Assembly: GCF_001570405.1 (NCBI RefSeq)
Contig: NZ_BBYM01000024.1
Span: 62,001 to 126,000 of the forward strand
Length of the DNA: 64,000 bases
Direction of reading: 5' to 3'
Source: Microtetraspora niveoalba
Lineage (GTDB): Bacteria > Actinomycetota > Actinomycetes > Streptosporangiales > Streptosporangiaceae
The translations under genes and the position numbers were made by a program. The notes beneath the pieces are model-generated. The model had not been told where the DNA came from. It was given only the letters and a program-made list of their open reading frames with translations, and did not search any database. Every line of letters begins with the position of its first letter. Within the stretch, counting starts at the first letter, position 1. This document shows, piece by piece, positions 47,121-54,283 of this stretch.

Positions 47121-48513
47121 GCCAACCCCTTACCCATCCTATCGACACTCAGGTATCGAGTGGATTGGGCGGGTGCCCGCTCATTGGGCAGTCGCTCCCG
47201 GACACTCCGGGTTGCAGCTAAGGCGCGAGAAGAATATCGGGCTCAAAGAGGGAACTGTTCTCTCGCTGAGCTATGGTCGAATTATTGTCAAGCCTCAAGA
47301 GAAGCTTCGAGGTCTCATTCCGGATTCATTCGAGACGTATCAGATCGCAGACCCCGGAAACATTATTATTCGGCCAACCGATCTCCAAAATGACAAGACC
47401 AGCCTTCGGGTCGGGCTTGTGCGCAACCGGGGGATAATTACCTCAGCTTACCTGTGTATTCAAGCCCGTCCAGCATTACTCCCCGAATATGCCTACGAGC
47501 TGCTCCGAGCGTACGATCTGCTAAAGATCTTTTATGGAATGGGATCCGGCCTTCGTCAGAACCTCGAATTTGGCGAACTGAAACGGATGCCGATCATCCT
47601 CCCGCCCATCGAAGAACAGCACGCGATTGTGAGTTACCTGGGGTATGTCAGTCGCCAGGTTAATGCGGCGATCCGCGCGAAACTGAATTTCATCGATCTA
47701 TTGCGTGAGCAGAAGCGCGCGATCGTACATCAGGCTGTCACTCGCGGCCTGAATCCGAGCGTACCGCTGAAGGAGTCCGGCATTCCTGGCGTTGATGCCA
47801 TCCCTCAACATTGGGAAGTTATGCGAGTAAAGCAGGTTTGCGAGCGTATCGTGGACTGCAAGAACAGGACGCCCGACCTGGTGCCCGACGGAGACTACAC
47901 AGTTGTCCGGACCACGAATGTGCGTGGCGGGGAGTTCTCGAAGATTGGATCTTATCCCACCGACTTAAAGAATTATGTCGAGTGGACACGACGAGGCGCT
48001 CCCCAAATCGGAGACGTGTTCTTTACGCGGGAAGCACCCGCCGGAGAGGCGTGTCTCGTCCCCGACATTCCGGGCCTGTGCATGGGGCAGAGGATGATGT
48101 ACTTCCGACCTCGACGTGATCTCTTGGACAGCGGCTTCCTGCTCCATAGCATCTATGGCCCCGTAGCGCGCACATACATCAATCTCACCACGAACGGCAG
48201 CACCGTCGGGCATCTCCGTCTGGGGCAGGTCTCGTCACTGCCACTTCTGTGGTGCCCTCGGGAGGAGCAGGTAGAGATCGTAGAGCATATCGACCGCGCA
48301 TCTCAGCCTCTCAATGCAGCCATCAGCCGTGCGGAGCGCGAGATTGCGCTACTCCGCGAATACCGCACCCGTCTGACCGCTGATGTGGTGACGGGAAAGG
48401 TGGATGTGCGCGCAGCAGCAGCCTTACTGCCAAATGACGCGGAACTTTTCGGGGCGGATGAGGCGCTAGAGGATATTGAGGACCTTGCGCTGGAGGATGA
48501 GGCAGAAGAGTGA
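47110..48513 (+). CDS. hsdS: type I restriction-modification system specificity (S) subunit
   Basis: 467 residues with two target-recognition domains. Each begins with the usual motif: YRHSGIEWIGRVPAHWAVAP near residue 13 and LKESGIPGVDAIPQHWEVMR near 222. Each ends in conserved coiled-coil spacers: EEQHAIVSYLGYVSRQVNAA...LLREQKRAIVHQAVTRGLNP, and EEQVEIVEHIDRASQPLNAA...LLREYRTRLTADVVTGKVDV. An acidic C-terminal tail follows. The GTG at 47110 lies inside the hsdM end. The recognition sequence cannot be deduced. AT content is somewhat higher than in neighbours, which suggests transfer. Confidence 0.94.
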   Translation: MSTEPTPYPSYRHSGIEWIGRVPAHWAVAPGHSGLQLRREKNIGLKEGTVLSLSYGRIIVKPQEKLRGLIPDSFETYQIADPGNIIIRPTDLQNDKTSLRVGLVRNRGIITSAYLCIQARPALLPEYAYELLRAYDLLKIFYGMGSGLRQNLEFGELKRMPIILPPIEEQHAIVSYLGYVSRQVNAAIRAKLNFIDLLREQKRAIVHQAVTRGLNPSVPLKESGIPGVDAIPQHWEVMRVKQVCERIVDCKNRTPDLVPDGDYTVVRTTNVRGGEFSKIGSYPTDLKNYVEWTRRGAPQIGDVFFTREAPAGEACLVPDIPGLCMGQRMMYFRPRRDLLDSGFLLHSIYGPVARTYINLTTNGSTVGHLRLGQVSSLPLLWCPREEQVEIVEHIDRASQPLNAAISRAEREIALLREYRTRLTADVVTGKVDVRAAAALLPNDAELFGADEALEDIEDLALEDEAEE

Positions 48514-51446
48514 GTACACAACTGAATGAGGAAGGGCTTGAGGCCCTCATTGTCCGTGACATGGTGGCTAGGGGCTGGACCGAGGGTAGCCGCCACGACT
48601 ACGACCGTGACTACGCAGTAGACCTTGTTCAGCTGTCTGCCTTCTTGGCCGCGACGCAGCCGCACCTCATCGAGGCTCTCGATCTCGATGCGGACTCACC
48701 GACCCGCCGGAAATTCCTTGCACGGCTGCAAGGGCAGATCACGGCCCACGGCGTCGTCAACGTCCTCCGCAACGGAATCAAGGACGGTCAGCACGAGATC
48801 GACCTGTTCTATGGGACGCCGTCGAAAGGCAACAAGAAGGCCACCGATCTGTTTGCCCACAACCGGTTCACCGTTGCGAGGCAGGTGCGGTACAGCCTCG
48901 ACGAGACGCAGCGTGCCCTGGATCTGGTTATCTTCATCAATGGGCTACCGATCGCGACCTTCGAGCTGAAGAACAGCCTGACCAAGCAGACAGCCGAGGA
49001 CGCGATCCAGCAATACAAGCGCGACCGGAACCCGAAAGAACTCCTCTTTCAGCACGGCCGTTGTGTCGCTCACTTCGCGCTAGACGACCAGGTTGTGCGA
49101 TTCTGCACCCACCTGAAGGGCAGGCACTCCTGGTTCCTTCCCTTCGACAAGGGCTGGAAGGATGGCGCGGGAAACCCACCGAATCCGGAAGGAACCAAGA
49201 CTGCCTACCTGTGGCAGACAATCCTCGCGCCGACGAGCCTGACAGACATCGTGGAGAACTACGCCTCTCGGATCGAGGAGAAAAACCCCAGGACCAACAG
49301 GAAGAGCCACAAGCAGATCTTCCCCCGCTATCACCAGCTTGACGTGGTCCGTGGGCTTCTCGCGGACGCCGCGAAGAAGGGTGTCGGGCAGAAGTATCTG
49401 ATCCAGCACTCCGCGGGTAGTGGAAAGTCCAACTCCATCGCCTGGCTTGCGCTTCAGTTGGTGACGCTTGAGCGGGAGAACGCCAAGGTCTTCGACTCAA
49501 TCATCGTGGTGACCGACCGACGCATCCTGGATGGTCAGATCCACGCTACGATCAAGCAGTTCTCACAGGTGAAGTCCATTCTCGCGCATGCGGACAGCTC
49601 TGCGGACCTGCGTCGGGCGATCGAGGCCGGGAAGAAAATCATCATCACCACGGTCCAGAAGTTTCCCTTCATCCTCGACGGCATCGGTGACAACCACCGG
49701 GACCGGAACTTTGCAATCGTGATCGACGAGGCCCACTCCAGCCAGGGTGGTAAAAGCACTGGAGCAGTGAATACCGCCTTCTCTCCCACCTCCAGCGAGG
49801 AGGCCGAAGAGGAAACGGTTGAGGACAAGATCAACAAGATCATTGAAGCACGGAGGATGCTCTCTAACGCGAGTTACTTCGCGTTCACGGCCACCCCGAA
49901 GAACAAGACGCTAGAGCTCTTCTGCCAGGCAGGGCCAGATGGCCGCCGGCGAGCCTTCCACACGTACAGCATGAAGCAGGCCATCGAAGAGGGCTTCATC
50001 CTCGACGTGCTAAAGAACTACATGCCCATCACCAGCTTCTACAAGCTGATGAAGACCGTGGAGGGCGACCCGGAGTTCGACAGTAAGAAGGCCGAGAAGA
50101 AGCTCCGACAGTACGTGGAAAACCATGAGTATGCGATCAGGGCCAAGGCCGAGATCATGGTTGACCACTTCCACGAACACGTTATCGCCCTGAAGAAGAT
50201 TGGCGGGAACGCAAGATCGATGGTCGTGACCAGCAGCATCGCTCGTGCAATCGAGTACTACCACGCCATCTCCGACTACCTCGTGGAACGCAAGAGCCCC
50301 TATCGAGCCATCGTCGCCTTCTCGGGAGAGCACGAGTACGGTGGGAATAAGGTCACGGAGGCAACGCTAAACGATTTCCCGAGTAATCAGATCGCCGAGA
50401 AGATCCAGGAGGATCCGTACCGGATCCTGGTCTGCGCCGACAAGTTCCAGACGGGCTACGATGAGCCGCTGCTGCACACCATGTACGTGGACAAGGCACT
50501 CTCCGGGGTCAAGGCAGTCCAGACGCTCTCACGCCTTAACCGGGCCCACCCGGACAAGCGCGACGTTGCGGTGCTCGACTTCTTCAATGACGCCCTCACC
50601 ATTGAGAAGGCGTTCTCCGATCACTACCGCACTACAGTGCTCGTTGAATCCACCGATCCGAACAAGCTGCATGACCTCAAGGCCGACCTCGACAGTTTCG
50701 GTATCTATACACCCGAGCACGTCGAGTCGTTCGTTCGGCTCTATCTGCAAGACGCCGACCGCGAACAGCTAGACCCGATCCTGGACGTTTGTGTGGCGGC
50801 CTACATCGAAGAGCTCGACGAGGACGATCAGATCGAGTTTAAAGGTAAAGCCAAGGCGTTTGTCCGGACCTATGACTTCCTCTCCTCAGTCCTGTCGTAT
50901 TCCAGCGTCGCCTGGGAGAAGCTCTCGATCCTGCTTACCTTCCTGGTTTCCAAACTTCCCGCTCCAAGGGAGGAGGACCTTTCTAGAGGAATCTTAGAAA
51001 CCATTGACATGGAGAGCTACCGAATCGAGAAGAAGGCTGCCATGTCCATTGCCCTGCCGGACGAAGACGGCGAGATCAAGCCCGTTCCGATGGCAGGCGT
51101 GGGATATCGACAGGAACCAGAAATGGAAAGTCTTTCCTCGATCATCAAAAACTTCAACGACCACTTCGGTAACATACAGTGGACCGATGCCGACCGCATC
51201 CAAAAGCTGATCTTTCAAGAGATTCCTGCCATGGTTGCCGCCGACGAGGACTACCAGCGGGCCATGCAGGGCAGTGATAAGCAGAACGCGAAGATCGAGC
51301 ACGGCCACGCTCTTGGACGTGTGATGCGGTCCTTGCTCAAGGATCACACCGAGCTATTCAAGTATTTCAGCAATGATGAGTCATTCAAACGTTGGATGAC
51401 CGATTTCGTCTTCGACGAGACGTACAAGAGGAACAAGTCTGCCTAA
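48510..51446 (+). CDS. hsdR: type I restriction-modification system endonuclease/translocase (R) subunit
   Basis: 978 residues. The nuclease core is D138-x13-E152-x-K154 (LDLVIFINGLPIATFELKNS). The motor has HSAGSGKSNS (Walker A, about 301-308), VIDEAHSSQGG (DEAH box, 406-409), FAFTATPKNKTLELF (motif III) and FQTGYDEPLLHTMYVDK plus VQTLSRLNR (motifs V-VI). All look intact. The GTG overlaps the hsdS stop, so the three genes form one translation-coupled operon in the order M-S-R. Confidence 0.95.
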   Translation: MSTQLNEEGLEALIVRDMVARGWTEGSRHDYDRDYAVDLVQLSAFLAATQPHLIEALDLDADSPTRRKFLARLQGQITAHGVVNVLRNGIKDGQHEIDLFYGTPSKGNKKATDLFAHNRFTVARQVRYSLDETQRALDLVIFINGLPIATFELKNSLTKQTAEDAIQQYKRDRNPKELLFQHGRCVAHFALDDQVVRFCTHLKGRHSWFLPFDKGWKDGAGNPPNPEGTKTAYLWQTILAPTSLTDIVENYASRIEEKNPRTNRKSHKQIFPRYHQLDVVRGLLADAAKKGVGQKYLIQHSAGSGKSNSIAWLALQLVTLERENAKVFDSIIVVTDRRILDGQIHATIKQFSQVKSILAHADSSADLRRAIEAGKKIIITTVQKFPFILDGIGDNHRDRNFAIVIDEAHSSQGGKSTGAVNTAFSPTSSEEAEEETVEDKINKIIEARRMLSNASYFAFTATPKNKTLELFCQAGPDGRRRAFHTYSMKQAIEEGFILDVLKNYMPITSFYKLMKTVEGDPEFDSKKAEKKLRQYVENHEYAIRAKAEIMVDHFHEHVIALKKIGGNARSMVVTSSIARAIEYYHAISDYLVERKSPYRAIVAFSGEHEYGGNKVTEATLNDFPSNQIAEKIQEDPYRILVCADKFQTGYDEPLLHTMYVDKALSGVKAVQTLSRLNRAHPDKRDVAVLDFFNDALTIEKAFSDHYRTTVLVESTDPNKLHDLKADLDSFGIYTPEHVESFVRLYLQDADREQLDPILDVCVAAYIEELDEDDQIEFKGKAKAFVRTYDFLSSVLSYSSVAWEKLSILLTFLVSKLPAPREEDLSRGILETIDMESYRIEKKAAMSIALPDEDGEIKPVPMAGVGYRQEPEMESLSSIIKNFNDHFGNIQWTDADRIQKLIFQEIPAMVAADEDYQRAMQGSDKQNAKIEHGHALGRVMRSLLKDHTELFKYFSNDESFKRWMTDFVFDETYKRNKSA

Positions 51447-51507: not shown

Positions 51508-53514
51508 TGTCTAGTCCCAGAACATGATTGACAGTTCTGTCCCACCACATACTTGACGGATGCCCTAGGAAACATGACCGGCCTTGCGGGGCCGGGCCGC
51601 TTTGATACTGCGGACGGGCTGAGTCGTGGTGCGGCGAACCACTCGGGCGTCGTCGGGCAGTTCGATGGTCAGCGTGGTCTCGCTGACATGCACGGTGACC
51701 ACCGCGCGGGCGTGCAGACGGCCGAGGGCGACCTTCTGCCCGGCGACCATGATGACCCCGCTGTTGCTGGCGACTCGCTGCACGGTGATCGGCTCAACCG
51801 AGGGCCGGGGCGGCGGCCCGGCCGGTCGGGCGTCCCGCAGATGCCGCACCCGGTCCCAGCCGATCGGGTTCGGGCGAGTGCGCAGCAGCTCACGGGTGGT
51901 GGGGTCGAAGAACATCAGCGTGTGTTCCTCGATCCGGACGCTCACACGCCGGCCGCCCAGGATCTCAGCCGCCAGCACGATACGTCCCGCCAAGCTGACC
52001 GTGCCCGCTCGGCTGACGGTCCGGTCCACCTCCACCGCACTGCCGGACTCGGCAGCCGGCAGCGGTGCCGGACCGGCCGCACGTCCCCCGTTCGCGGCCA
52101 GCTTGGCCAGGTCCGCGTTCGACAGGTGCGAACGGAAGCTCTTCAAGCGGACCCCGGCGACCAGCAGATGGACCACGTCGGTGTCGGCCCAGAACGTCAC
52201 TCGCACCCCGGCCCGATCCGGACCGAGCCAGAACTGGCGCCCCGCCACGAACATGTTTCCACTGGCGGGCACGACCCGCTCGAACTCCACCGGCCCACCC
52301 GACCATGCCCGGACCGGCCCTTCGGCGACCACCCGGCGAGCCTGCCCGTCCCCCTCGGCGACGGCCTGTCCGGCCCGCTGCTCCGTATCCGGTGAGGCTG
52401 CCGGTTCCGGCTGGGCGATGACCTGCCCGTTCACGGCCGTCAACGTCGCGGGCAGCCGCAACGGCAGCAGATCCTCCTGGGGGCCGGTCTTGGGGACGAA
52501 CCGATCCGCGGGATAGGCCATCCCGATCGCCTGGTGCGGACGCTGAGTGTTGTATTCGGCCACCCAGGCATCCACCGCGGCCTGCGCCGCCTCCAGGTCC
52601 TCAAACGGCACCGCATCGTCCAGCAGCTCGCGACGCAGCGTCTGATGAAACCGCTCAACCTTCCCGGTCGTGGTCGGAGAGCGTGGCTCGGTCAACCGAT
52701 GAGTGATGCCGTTATCGCGGCAGATCCGATCGAACAGCACCTCCCCGCCCTTGCCGAACCGATCGGTGAACTGCTTGCCGTTGTCGGTGAGCACCTCATC
52801 CGGCACCCCGAACGCGCGCAGCGCCGCCGCGAAGGCCAGGCACACCGCACGCCCGGTGGGACGGGCCACCACAGAGGCGATCACGCAATACCGGGAATGG
52901 TCGTCGATCCCGGTGACGACCTTCGCCTCGCTGCCGTCAGCCAGGAACACGCCGCCGACGATGTCCATCTGCCACAGCTGCATGGGAGTATCGCGTTCCC
53001 ACCGCAGGTAGTCCTCACGGCGTTTACGCCGCTGCTGAGGCTGGACCAGGCCGTGACGCACCAGCGCCCGATACACCCCCATCCGAGAGGGGACAGGCTC
53101 GATCCCGCGCTTCTTGGCCTCGTGCACCAGCCGGACCGGACCCCACCGGGGATGCTCACGGCGCAGCTCGCACACCACCGCTTCCACCTCCGCCGACAGC
53201 TGGGACGGTGAGGAGACCGGACGGCGGGAACGGTCGGCCAACCCGGCCAGGCCGGATTCTCGATAACGCCGCATCCAGGAATGCAATGTCTGGCGTGATA
53301 CCCCGATTCGGGTGGCGGTCTCGGTCACGCTCGCACCGGCGAGGACCGCGAGAACTGCCTGATAACGCTGCTCGACAACGGACAAATCGACCAGGGCCAA
53401 TCCCGGCCTCCTGACGCGCGCCATCCGCAAACGACGCACGAAAGATCGGCCGACAACGGCACCTGTCAAACATGTCCTGGGACTGATGTGTCAAGCATGT
53501 CCCGGGACAGGACA
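51508..53514. mobile_element. IS481-like insertion sequence, about 2.0 kb
   Basis: The ends are imperfect inverted repeats of about 57 bp. The left end reads TGTCTAGTCCCAGAACATGA inward, the right end TGTCCTGTCCCGGGACATGC. Each end contains two copies of a 20-nt box (GTCCCxGxACATGxTTGACA) with period 25, likely transposase sites. No target duplication is apparent. It inserted 61 bp after hsdR, leaving the restriction operon intact. Confidence 0.85.
51565..53421 (-). CDS. IS481-family transposase with a long C-terminal extension
   Basis: 618 residues. N-terminal helix-turn-helix (ATRIGVSRQTLHSWMRRYRE), then an rve/DDE core: LWQMDIVGGVF (Asp154), DEVLTDNGKQFTDRFGKGGE (Asp214), TTGKVERFHQTLRREL (Glu257) and NTQRPHQAIGMAYPADRF. 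Typical IS481 transposases end near residue 330; here about 290 more residues follow, with two similar beta-rich modules around VVPASGNMFVAGRQFWLGPD and VASNSGVIMVAGQKVALGRL. The ATG at 53421 lies just inside the right end; a start at 53469 is possible. Confidence 0.9.
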   Translation of the reverse strand, partial: ARVRRPGLALVDLSVVEQRYQAVLAVLAGASVTETATRIGVSRQTLHSWMRRYRESGLAGLADRSRRPVSSPSQLSAEVEAVVCELRREHPRWGPVRLVHEAKKRGIEPVPSRMGVYRALVRHGLVQPQQRRKRREDYLRWERDTPMQLWQMDIVGGVFLADGSEAKVVTGIDDHSRYCVIASVVARPTGRAVCLAFAAALRAFGVPDEVLTDNGKQFTDRFGKGGEVLFDRICRDNGITHRLTEPRSPTTTGKVERFHQTLRRELLDDAVPFEDLEAAQAAVDAWVAEYNTQRPHQAIGMAYPADRFVPKTGPQEDLLPLRLPATLTAVNGQVIAQPEPAASPDTEQRAGQAVAEGDGQARRVVAEGPVRAWSGGPVEFERVVPASGNMFVAGRQFWLGPDRAGVRVTFWADTDVVHLLVAGVRLKSFRSHLSNADLAKLAANGGRAAGPAPLPAAESGSAVEVDRTVSRAGTVSLAGRIVLAAEILGGRRVSVRIEEHTLMFFDPTTRELLRTRPNPIGWDRVRHLRDARPAGPPPRPSVEPITVQRVASNSGVIMVAGQKVALGRLHARAVVTVHVSETTLTIELPDDARVVRRTTTQPVRSIKAARPRKAGHVS

Positions 53515-53552
53515 GACAGGACAGTCGGTCACTTGCCGAATCGTTCTTGTAA

Positions 53553-53652
53553 GGATCAAGGGCGGCGCTGCGCGCCGCCTCGCGGCCCTACGCCCGCTCG
53601 GCGGCCGGGCATGCGGCCTGGGGGCCGGTCCCGGCCGCCGGCAGCTTGATCC
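53553..53652. repeat. 100-bp GC-rich palindromic element
   Basis: GGATCAAG (53553-53560) and CTTGATCC (53645-53652) bracket an extremely GC-rich core containing the hairpin GGCGGCGCTGCGCGCCGCC (53561-53579) and several further C/G self-complementary runs (GGCGGCCGGG, GGCCGCCGG-type). It lies between the IS end and the membrane-protein gene. It could be a REP/MITE-like palindrome, a structured RNA or a terminator for both sides. Confidence 0.55.
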
Positions 53653-53674
53653 GCACAGCGATCCTCGCGACGTC

Positions 53675-54283
53675 TTAGCCAGTGCAACCGTCGATGCGAG
53701 CTAGCCTGCTCTTGCCCGGACTCGCCCAGATCTCGAAGCGCCCGTACCCTCCAGATTTCCCGTAGGTTCTGTAGACATCCAGCGACGCCCTGTGTGGATC
53801 GGCGCCCGGGATCCACTGATCGCCGCCCTTCTCTACAAGGATCGTCCAGGGGCCAGTGATCGTGTTGGTCTCCACCGAGGCTTCGTTGCAGGGTGGAACC
53901 CACACACGCAAGTTCGGGTGATCATCGCCCTCCGCCGCGCGAATCAGGATCACCACCTGAGCGTCAGCTGTGTTGGTATTGCGCACCTTGATCTCGGTGC
54001 CCGTTTTCGTAGCGTAGGAAAGAGCAGACACTCGCTCAACGAACGCAGCATCTTCCCGGTCGTCCTCGTGCTGCACTTGATACAAGGCCACAGCAACACC
54101 AAGTGTGGCGACGACAACAGCAGCGCTCTCTATTCGTGCACTCTGACTGGCCCGCCTCTTGTCGTTGGTTACGACCAAGAATGCAGCCAGTCCTAGCAGT
54201 GGAACAACCCAAATCGGCACGTAGCCGATCAGCTCAACGAGACTGTGACCCAACTGCCTTAGGTAACTCTCAATTGTCGCCAT
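53675..54283 (-). CDS. two-helix membrane protein of unknown function (element cargo)
   Basis: 202 residues. Two N-terminal helices (IWVVPLLGLAAFLVVTN and AAVVVATLGVAVALYQVQH) are followed by a soluble beta-rich domain of about 120 residues (IKVRNTNTADAQVVILIRAA, TITGPWTILVEKGGDQWIPG, YGRFEIWASPGKSRLARIDG). The ATG has GAGAGG 6 nt upstream. I recognise no family. Its place beside a restriction system makes a phage-defence accessory role imaginable, but nothing in the sequence shows it. Confidence 0.65.
   Translation of the reverse strand: MATIESYLRQLGHSLVELIGYVPIWVVPLLGLAAFLVVTNDKRRASQSARIESAAVVVATLGVAVALYQVQHEDDREDAAFVERVSALSYATKTGTEIKVRNTNTADAQVVILIRAAEGDDHPNLRVWVPPCNEASVETNTITGPWTILVEKGGDQWIPGADPHRASLDVYRTYGKSGGYGRFEIWASPGKSRLARIDGCTG

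What the first reader, a model, noticed from the sequence alone, without database searches (positions are those of the whole stretch)
51508..53514. IS481-like element with doubled terminal boxes and a transposase twice the usual length
Each end has two 20-nt boxes with period 25, and the transposase has about 290 extra residues made of two similar beta-rich modules. The doubling of DNA boxes and of protein modules may be connected.
Basis: partly seen in the sequence, partly recalled or inferred. Interest (0 to 1): 0.5.

Follow-up and report, generated by a model that had tools for sequence, protein, structure and literature searches.

The report
Three-barrel IS481 element that hunts sites
This is a complete bacterial jumping gene whose enzyme carries three copies of a small barrel domain resembling one in Tn7-, Mu- and IS21-type transposases; most of its relatives landed at one fixed distance from a particular hairpin-bearing DNA site, which could make it a simple one-protein model for targeted transposition.

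Summary
In detail: a 2007-bp IS (51508-53514), each end with two 20-nt boxes at period 25, one IS481-type DDE transposase with a ~300-residue tail. Correction: the tail holds three homologous modules, modelled as beta-barrels; the nearest solved folds of the second and third are the barrels of TnsB and IstA.

The proposed link (boxes doubled because modules doubled) fails. Box pairs already exist in one-barrel relatives from several phyla; the closest one- and two-barrel relatives have 4+2 boxes, three-barrel elements 2+2. What holds is weaker: a barrel goes with tandem boxes, no barrel with a single box. On the tree that is one split, so coupling is not proven.

Unexpected: three-barrel elements show ~15-bp duplications (32 of 49 copies) and sit in one orientation ~46 nt after a conserved CTTGA (48 of 61 copies; window copy 46 nt) behind hairpins; 12 of 38 one-barrel copies lie at tRNA 3' ends. 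Barrel-less copies show 6 bp (16 of 29).

Best reading: a site-specific IS481 branch with an IS21/Tn7-like transpososome (tetramer on four boxes). Tetramer and barrel roles are inferred. New variant of a known kind; the window copy lacks an intact duplication.

The parts
51508..53514 (-). whole insertion sequence, 2007 bp, TGT...ACA ends (gene on - strand)
   Evidence: 57-bp imperfect terminal inverted repeat; in relatives such termini bound exact 13-16-bp duplications in 32 of 49 three-barrel copies
51514..51533 (+). left (3') outer box GTCCCAGAACATGATTGACA
51539..51558 (+). left (3') inner box, 25 nt further in, 15/20 identical to the outer box
53489..53508 (-). right (5') outer box GTCCCGGGACATGCTTGACA
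53464..53483 (-). right (5') inner box GTCCCAGGACATGTTTGACA
51565..53400 (-). transposase gene from the likely TTG start (611 aa, AGGAGG 6 nt before it); the open frame reaches up to TTG 53469 (634 aa)
   Evidence: start chosen by reading the sequence
53062..53370 (-). [quoted passage not shown]
   Evidence: Pfam HTH_28, HTH_32; two helical bundles in the model, aligned with IstA HTH plus DDE at high rmsd
52510..52989 (-). RNase H-like DDE domain (residues 161-320), catalytic D169, D229, E272
   Evidence: Pfam rve and rve_3; the three residues invariant in 29 of 29
52120..52293 (-). module M1 (residues 393-450), modelled as a beta-barrel
   Evidence: profile homology to M2 and M3 and model; no row over Z 3.4 covers it
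51862..52038 (-). beta-barrel module M2 (residues 478-536)
   Evidence: CAST TnsB barrel
51589..51792 (-). beta-barrel module M3 (residues 560-627), basic; the module profile that fits the single barrel of L175, L178 and L180 best
   Evidence: (IstA barrel)
53515..53529 (-). 15 nt next to the 5' end where the target duplication should lie; only 6 of 15 positions agree with the 15 nt left of the IS, so no intact duplication here
53556..53560 (-). CTTGA of the target site, starting 46 nt from the IS 5' end, the commonest distance in the family
53555..53650 (-). hairpin-rich target element closed by ATCAAG...CTTGAT (outside the IS)
   Evidence: covariation over 19 selected related sites

Best explanation
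A complete single-gene insertion sequence of the IS481 group, from an actinomycete branch whose transposase has two N-terminal HTH regions, a DDE domain and three tandem modules of the Mu/IS21/Tn7 barrel type. Shown by sequence: anatomy, conservation, 2+2 boxes at period 25, ~15-bp target duplication in relatives, and insertion in one orientation about 46 nt (CTTGA + ~25 nt + 15-bp duplication) after a conserved CTTGA behind hairpins. Inferred: the HTH pair of one subunit reads one box; four boxes hold a tetramer as in IS21, with catalytic subunits on the outer boxes and structural subunits on the inner ones; barrels tie subunits together and/or hold target DNA; the transposase alone picks the site, since no other recognisable gene lies in the IS. 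The box pair looks like the old part of the design; the three barrels arose later, probably once, in a lineage whose relatives have an extra inner pair at the 5' end.
For: IS481 assignment and DDE. Three modules homologous to each other by profile (97.3, 97.2, 96.6%), predicted as equal barrels (mean pLDDT 83). For M2 and M3 the top six VIA-align rows are all IstA or type V-K CAST (TnsB) chains (Z 5.7-6.1, 53-67 residues, rmsd 1.9-3.6), next row Z 4.5; 18 of 29 tails hit Pfam Mu-transpos_C_2 at the lax E limit of 5, best 3.5e-11. Full-length model: the first two rows are IstA over HTH plus DDE (Z 15.8), tied with retroviral integrases. Boxes 2+2 in 21 of 22. IS21 precedent: two repeats per end, tetramer, barrel contacts (PMC10122671, passages). 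Duplication 13-16 bp in 32 of 49. CTTGA at 45-48 nt in 48 of 61 copies with distinct flanks, at 44-48 nt in 28 of 32 duplication-anchored copies against 0 of 16 barrel-less and 0 of 12 one-barrel copies; 31 distinct duplication sequences among the 32, which speaks for separate insertions. Pfam finds nothing at E<=0.01 in five opposite-strand frames tested inside the IS.
Against: No binding, oligomer or transposition data. Fold Z about 6 is modest, M1 has no such match of its own, the whole-protein model is weak (pTM 0.37) and its IstA rows have rmsd 16-19. The window copy has no intact duplication (6 of 15). 17 of 49 three-barrel copies gave no long duplication (15 none, two of 5 bp). 13 of 61 copies miss the CTTGA rule as scripted; by reading, three are next to another copy, three are near-variants and two (the window copy among them) had the end misplaced, but L014, L016, L073, L077 and L126 look like other targets. 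Barrel and tandem boxes change together only once on the tree. M2 is nearly neutral.
Confidence: 0.65

Rival explanations
1. One reading: barrels bind boxes, and the doubling of barrels and boxes evolved together.
For: M2 and M3 resemble barrels of DNA-bound transposases, and M1 and M3 are basic.
Against: One-barrel elements already have box pairs (18 of 20; 14 of 16 one-barrel-type plasmid elements); nearest one- and two-barrel relatives have 4+2 boxes and three-barrel ones 2+2; three modules, not two. In IS21 the HTHs read the repeats (PMC10122671, passages).
Confidence: 0.05
2. The extra barrels M1 and M2 are a built-in target-reading module: they recognise the CTTGA hairpin site, doing for one protein what separate targeting proteins do for Tn7.
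For: Among copies anchored by a duplication only three-barrel-type ones sit at this site (28 of 32, plus L082, whose broken frame was counted as two-barrel, against 0 of 12 one-barrel and 0 of 16 barrel-less). The single barrel of L175, L178 and L180 fits M3 best, which suggests that M1 and M2 are the gain.
Against: One-barrel relatives are also site-selective, 12 of 38 copies beside tRNA 3' ends, so choosing a site does not need M1 and M2. One origin only. No binding data.
Confidence: 0.3
3. The site preference is passive: the IS is drawn to terminator-like hairpins or to a host protein bound there, and the transposase reads no sequence.
For: The aligned target sites mostly have GC-rich inverted repeats before CTTGA, while the sequence after CTTGA comes in two quite different forms; Nonomuraea copies with transposases of equal length and score (L063, L079-L081) use both.
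Against: Distance and orientation are nearly fixed (28 at 46, 10 at 45, 8 at 47 nt). CTTGA is invariant in the 19 sites aligned, but those were picked by CTTGA, so that is by construction.
Confidence: 0.25
4. The second boxes are operators that let the transposase repress its own gene, not part of the transpososome.
For: At the 5' end the boxes lie just upstream of the gene, and relatives have an extra pair there.
Against: The 3' end, far from the promoter, keeps its pair at exactly 25 nt in 21 of 22.
Confidence: 0.15

Closest known systems
IS481 group, classical members (IS1649, ISCmi2 examined here; ISLxc2 in PMC2516522, passages)
   Same: DDE core, TGT/ACA ends, single gene; the 3' half of the box looks alike by eye
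   Different: no barrel, no tandem boxes, 6-bp duplications (NCTAGN listed for ISLxc2), kept open frames 307-422 aa
IS21 (IstA)
   Same: two HTHs, DDE, C-terminal barrel, two direct repeats per end 23 bp apart (PMC10122671, passages); first, tied rows for the whole-chain model
   Different: one barrel; works with the AAA+ partner IstB; NCBIfam IS21 model below its cut-off here (89.8 of 160)
Tn7 and CAST TnsB
   Same: TGT/ACA ends, several transposase sites per end, barrel after DDE, insertion at a fixed place beside a defined site; tRNA genes are common attachment sites of Tn7-like elements (PMC11406308, passages)
   Different: several proteins and separate targeting subunits; here one protein; ~15-bp duplication
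IS1202 family (ISAjo2; PMC10132070, passages including the abstract)
   Same: single DDE transposase with two HTHs and a barrel, extra transposase site near each end, insertion at fixed distance and orientation beside a defined site (dif)
   Different: one barrel, 5-bp duplication in the dif-targeting members, Q at E+7 where this protein has R279
IS481EU and long-duplication IS481/IS1202 members (PMC10045372: abstract, passages, whole discussion)
   Same: ~15-bp duplications; the authors ask how discrete lengths arise and say they have no clue for the longer ones of IS481EU
   Different: eukaryotic or other lineages; the text has 0 occurrences of 'barrel', 'C-terminal' and 'tandem'

Membership tests
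IS481 group | transposase above the NCBIfam IS481 cut-off | tested here: met
   293 bits, cut-off 224
IS481 group | DDE triad | tested here: met
   D169, D229, E272 invariant in 29 of 29
IS481 group | TGT...ACA termini with inverted repeats | tested here: met
IS481 group | target duplication within the published 2-15 bp range (PMC10045372) | tested here: inconclusive
   relatives 13-16 bp; window copy has none intact
IS21 family | IstA above its model cut-off | tested here: not met
   89.8 bits, cut-off 160
IS21 family | AAA+ partner IstB encoded in the element | tested here: not met
   the transposase frame fills the IS; five opposite-strand frames scanned, no Pfam match at E<=0.01
IS21 family | two direct repeats per end about 23 bp apart | tested here: met
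   two per end at 25 bp; a shared way of working, not membership
IS1202 family | Q at the seventh residue after the catalytic E | tested here: not met
   E272, then R279, R in at least 90% of 29; criterion from PMC10132070
IS1202 family | beta-barrel after DDE and an extra transposase site per end | tested here: met
   barrel by model and fold match; second box per end; that the boxes are bound is inferred
Tn7-like transposons | separate TnsA/TnsC/targeting genes in the element | tested here: not met
   one recognisable gene in the IS; flanks are an hsdR-like gene and an unnamed 202-aa frame
Tetrameric Mu/IS21-type transpososome | four subunits on two ends with two sites each | not testable with these tools
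   needs biochemistry or cryo-EM

The most novel reading that the evidence does not exclude
A second lineage of one-protein site-hunting ISs beside IS1202: the barrel-bearing IS481 branch aims at the 3' sides of structured loci (tRNA genes in many one-barrel elements, a hairpin-bearing CTTGA site of unknown nature in three-barrel elements), and its added barrels took over target capture and transpososome bracing while two inner boxes were lost. It would be a minimal one-protein counterpart of Tn7 targeting.
Probability: 0.3. Interest if true: 0.8.

Novelty: new variant of a known kind. Interest (0 to 1): 0.62.

Why it matters
The IS1202 paper says that no other IS family with a DDE transposase has Tn7-like features and calls fixed-site targeting by an IS relatively uncommon. 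Here another, widespread IS lineage seems to show such features, with a natural series of 0, 1, 2 and 3 barrels, single, 4+2 and 2+2 boxes, and 6- and ~15-bp duplications. That makes two open questions testable by swapping ends and barrels: what sets duplication length (PMC10045372 has no clue for the long ones of IS481EU), and how a lone transposase finds its target. It also exposes a conserved, covarying hairpin element of unknown function that the IS repeatedly uses as landing site.

Tried and rejected
Two modules: rejected, three. Barrel number sets box number: rejected. A barrel always means a ~15-bp duplication: rejected; it looked clean in actinomycetes, but one-barrel-type plasmid elements of Proteobacteria show 5-6 bp (L300, L301, L302, L303, L305; no chance control was run for these short matches). 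Box spacing sets duplication length: not supported (elements with 23/23 spacing show both lengths). Known RNA for the target element: in 20 loci only tRNAs reach gathering level, nothing at E<=0.5 in 13 loci, two chance-level matches around the window site. A shared gene upstream of the target: none convincing in 51 flanks. Solved-structure sequence search with the tail: one match, E 0.67, unrelated.

Literature, open-access PMC text only; ISfinder could not be searched. IS481 with beta-barrel and transposase: 7 papers listed, other subjects by title; one opened by passages has no link (PMC7335449), six not opened. IS481 with tRNA genes and target specificity: 2 listed; the one opened by passages names IS481 only for its TGT/ACA ends (PMC11406308). 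Searches for IS481 ends, 15-bp duplications and actinomycete forms: listings, of which PMC10045372, PMC2516522 and PMC7335449 were opened; none shows this variant in what I saw. So 'not in print' is not claimed. A search by sequence string gave 51 papers, 10 listed, unrelated by title.

A first repeat test used a faulty shuffle that left repeats in place; supersede it. Rows dropped before counting: 27 of the 120 non-redundant elements by hand (16 barrel-less: broken, short or other; 7 one-barrel: other families or truncated; 3 two-barrel: judged damaged three-barrel copies; 1 three-barrel), then those without a significant inverted repeat (9 of 34, 3 of 23, 0 of 3, 11 of 33 for 0, 1, 2, 3 barrels). 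One search applied no hand drop; its four 'two-barrel' rows include L082, which has three-barrel-type ends. One search used the 22 three-barrel elements and 9 one- and two-barrel elements nearest by tree, and its matrix was trained on these same ends from a seed that I chose. The tree used 17 of the 22 three-barrel rows. In one search, 4 of the 16 one-barrel-type tails gave no profile hit and one only E 0.5; they were classed by tail length and reading. The 19 sites were picked from the 62 for a recognisable hairpin arm. In one search, L207 is another cut of an element (L179) that I had dropped as broken elsewhere.

Full report
The element. The window holds a complete 2007-bp insertion sequence at 51508-53514, gene on the minus strand. 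Its ends, TGTCTAGTCCC... and TGTCCTGTCCC..., form a 57-bp imperfect inverted repeat. Each end has two 20-nt boxes, GTCCC(A/G)G(A/G)ACATGNTTGAC(A/G)-like, exactly 25 nt apart; the outer and inner boxes agree at 15/20 (left) and 18/20 (right), reached together by 0 of 20000 simple shuffles. The one long recognisable frame is an IS481-type transposase (NF033577, 293 bits, cut-off 224), open over 634 codons; AGGAGG before a TTG at 53398-53400 points to a 611-aa product (my reading). Five opposite-strand frames inside the IS match no Pfam family at E<=0.01.

The tail. Residues beyond about 330 had no Pfam match in this protein. Aligned with 28 relatives they show three modules, related to each other by profile comparison at 96.6-97.3% probability. 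AlphaFold2 on 29 tails gives three barrels with the same order of strands (mean pLDDT 83, pTM 0.43). VIA-align puts IstA and type V-K CAST (TnsB) chains in all six top rows (Z 5.7-6.1), with the next row at Z 4.5; these rows cover M2 and M3, while M1 is covered by no row above Z 3.4, so its barrel nature rests on homology and the model. Foldseek alone ranks many unrelated beta proteins first, with no E below 0.001, though the IstA rows at ranks 18 and 26 carry probability 1.00 and 0.98. 18 of 29 tails hit Pfam Mu-transpos_C_2 at the lax limit of E 5, best 3.5e-11; the window's own tail does not. The whole protein is modelled as helical N-terminal bundles, an RNase H fold, a disordered linker and three barrels (mean pLDDT 74, pTM 0.37). 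Its first two structural rows are IstA over HTH plus DDE (Z 15.8, 279-283 residues, but rmsd 16-19), tied with retroviral integrases over the DDE part.

How common. 79 loci, a capped list, came from genome contigs that all bear actinomycete titles, and 71 of 297 genomes of the window's own family match the tail. The window genome has one whole copy, a 34-residue remnant of the same tail on another contig and one weak further match. The best plasmid relative is annotated as IS481 family transposase. So this is a known family by name; the anatomy and behaviour below are what I did not find described.

Boxes and barrels. I sorted 120 non-redundant IS481-type proteins by barrel number and tested, for those with significant inverted repeats, whether an end contains a direct repeat of 18 nt. 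With regions from 60 nt outside to 100 nt inside the repeat start: barrel-less 2 of 25 (spacings 34 and 54, not box-like), one barrel 18 of 20, two barrels 2 of 3, three barrels 19 of 22 (p<=0.01 at either end). With regions starting at the repeat: 0 of 25, 11 of 20, 2 of 3, 21 of 22. Of 18 plasmid elements, IS1649 and ISCmi2 are barrel-less without a repeat; 14 of the 16 one-barrel-type ones, from Pseudomonadota, Acidobacteriota, Spirochaetota and Rhodococcus, have a repeat at p<=0.01, and the other two reach 0.015 and 0.02. A weight matrix trained on the three-barrel branch and its nearest relatives counts 2+2 boxes in 21 of 22 three-barrel elements (2+1 in one), 4+2 in 5 of 6 one-barrel relatives (4+1 in one) and 4+2 in 2 of 3 two-barrel relatives (3+2 in one whose contig begins 133 nt before the open frame); 0.02 false sites per shuffled region. 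Spacing is 25 at every pair of three-barrel elements. In the relatives the outermost 5' spacing is 25 in 7 of 9, the innermost 5' spacing 20-23 in 9 of 9, and the 3' spacing 25 in the 8 of 9 with two 3' boxes. So the pair looks ancestral to the barrel branch, and the rise to three barrels went with loss of the second 5' pair.

How far this proves coupling. On a tree of 83 cores, barrel-less elements are one side of a branch (SH-aLRT 95) and three-barrel elements another (93); all barrel numbers need only 3 changes (quick method). Barrel and tandem boxes therefore differ at a single split, one comparison and not many. Outside support comes from IS21, where the authors tie two repeats per end and the barrel to a tetramer and contrast Mos1, with one repeat, no barrel and a dimer (PMC10122671, passages), and from IS1202, with a barrel and an extra transposase site (PMC10132070, passages).

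Target duplication. Between TGT and ACA termini, exact duplications (5 bp or more sought) were 6 bp in 16 of 29 barrel-less copies and never longer, 13 none; 14-18 bp in 12 of 22 one-barrel copies, 10 none; 15 bp in 1 of 4 two-barrel rows; 13-16 bp in 32 of 49 three-barrel copies, 19 of them exactly 15 (two more gave 5 bp, 15 none). This is not a rule for barrels: one-barrel-type elements of Proteobacteria gave 5-6 bp (5 of the 16 plasmid ones, one more with a doubtful 4 bp, ten none). A published barrel-less-sized member, ISLxc2 (332 aa), is listed with target NCTAGN (PMC2516522, passages). Kojima and Bao report 6- and ~15-bp classes for IS481 and write that they have no clue how the longer ones of IS481EU arise (PMC10045372, discussion read whole).

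Target choice. Listing flanks showed the same motif beside most three-barrel copies. Of 61 copies with a defined 5' end and distinct 60-nt flanks, 48 have CTTGA 45-48 nt upstream (28 at 46, 10 at 45, 8 at 47, 2 at 48). With ends fixed by the duplication, 28 of 32 three-barrel copies fit, against 0 of 16 barrel-less and 0 of 12 one-barrel copies; the 32 duplications have 31 different sequences, which speaks for separate insertions. The window copy fits at 46 nt although the script misplaced its end. The site is a hairpin-rich element: in 19 sites that I picked for a recognisable arm from 62 aligned, 17 pairs are kept in 92.6% of cells against 76.2% in shuffles, 11 pairs have changes on both sides, and 0 of 500 shuffles are as high on any of the five measures (the structure was predicted from the same alignment). 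Sliding the partners drops the paired cells to 33-57%. 13 loci with such sites match no Rfam family at E<=0.5. The strict form CCTTGAN{3,6}GTAGAGAAAG occurs in 10 of 61 family genomes, 12 hits, none for the reversed control and none in the window genome; at least one hit (L338) lacks the hairpin by reading. One-barrel elements choose differently: 12 of 38 copies lie within 70 nt of a tRNA 3' end, against 1 of 28 in the barrel-less class (L207, a broken member of the barrel branch by my reading), 0 of 4 two-barrel and 0 of 52 three-barrel copies. tRNA genes are also common attachment sites of Tn7-like elements (PMC11406308, passages).

Mechanism. Most likely the HTH pair of each subunit reads one box, four boxes seat a tetramer with active sites at the outer boxes, and the barrels brace the tetramer or hold target DNA. 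No other recognisable gene lies in the IS, so site choice must rest on the transposase or a host factor. The anatomy, duplications and target statistics are shown; tetramer, barrel role and self-targeting are inferred.

Limits. The window copy lacks an intact duplication: 6 of 15 positions agree, the last five in a row; its left flank has probably changed since insertion. Several three-barrel copies sit elsewhere (L014, L016, L073, L077, L126). Hand exclusions are listed under Tried and rejected. ISfinder itself could not be searched.

Noticed in passing
window 53555-53665 (- strand); L318-L321, L325, L330, L332, L333, L335-L337: Hairpin-rich intergenic element with covariation, ending in CTTGA(A/T/C); 11 matches to the window's 140 nt in this genome at E<=0.01, four over 100 bits. 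Landing site of the IS, function unknown, no Rfam match.
   Followed up: partly
L330, L339 and L340: genome G048, contig 63, 1116-1205: Three tandem copies, 35 bp apart, of the tail of that site, CCTTGAAAACGTAGAGAAAG...; might be a scar of repeated insertion and loss.
   Followed up: no
L178, L204, L212, L214, L225, L226, L228, L230, L251, L255, L290, L308: One-barrel IS481 copies lying at tRNA gene 3' ends.
   Followed up: partly
L300, L301, L302, L303, L305: Plasmid IS481 elements of Proteobacteria with one-barrel-type tails, tandem boxes and 5-6-bp duplications, the counterexample to barrel = long duplication.
   Followed up: partly
L015, L036, L061: Three-barrel elements that look inserted next to another copy of the same family.
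   Followed up: no
window 48510-51446: hsdR-like gene (TIGR00348, 214 bits, below the 284.55 cut-off) ending 61 nt before the IS; the stretch between has a short tandem repeat (GGGGTGGCTTC twice).
   Followed up: no
window 53675-54283 (-): 202-aa frame beyond the target element, no NCBIfam match at E<=0.001.
   Followed up: no
G000 contig 25, 78618-78719 (L002): Remnant matching the last 34 residues of the same transposase (79%), elsewhere in this genome.
   Followed up: no
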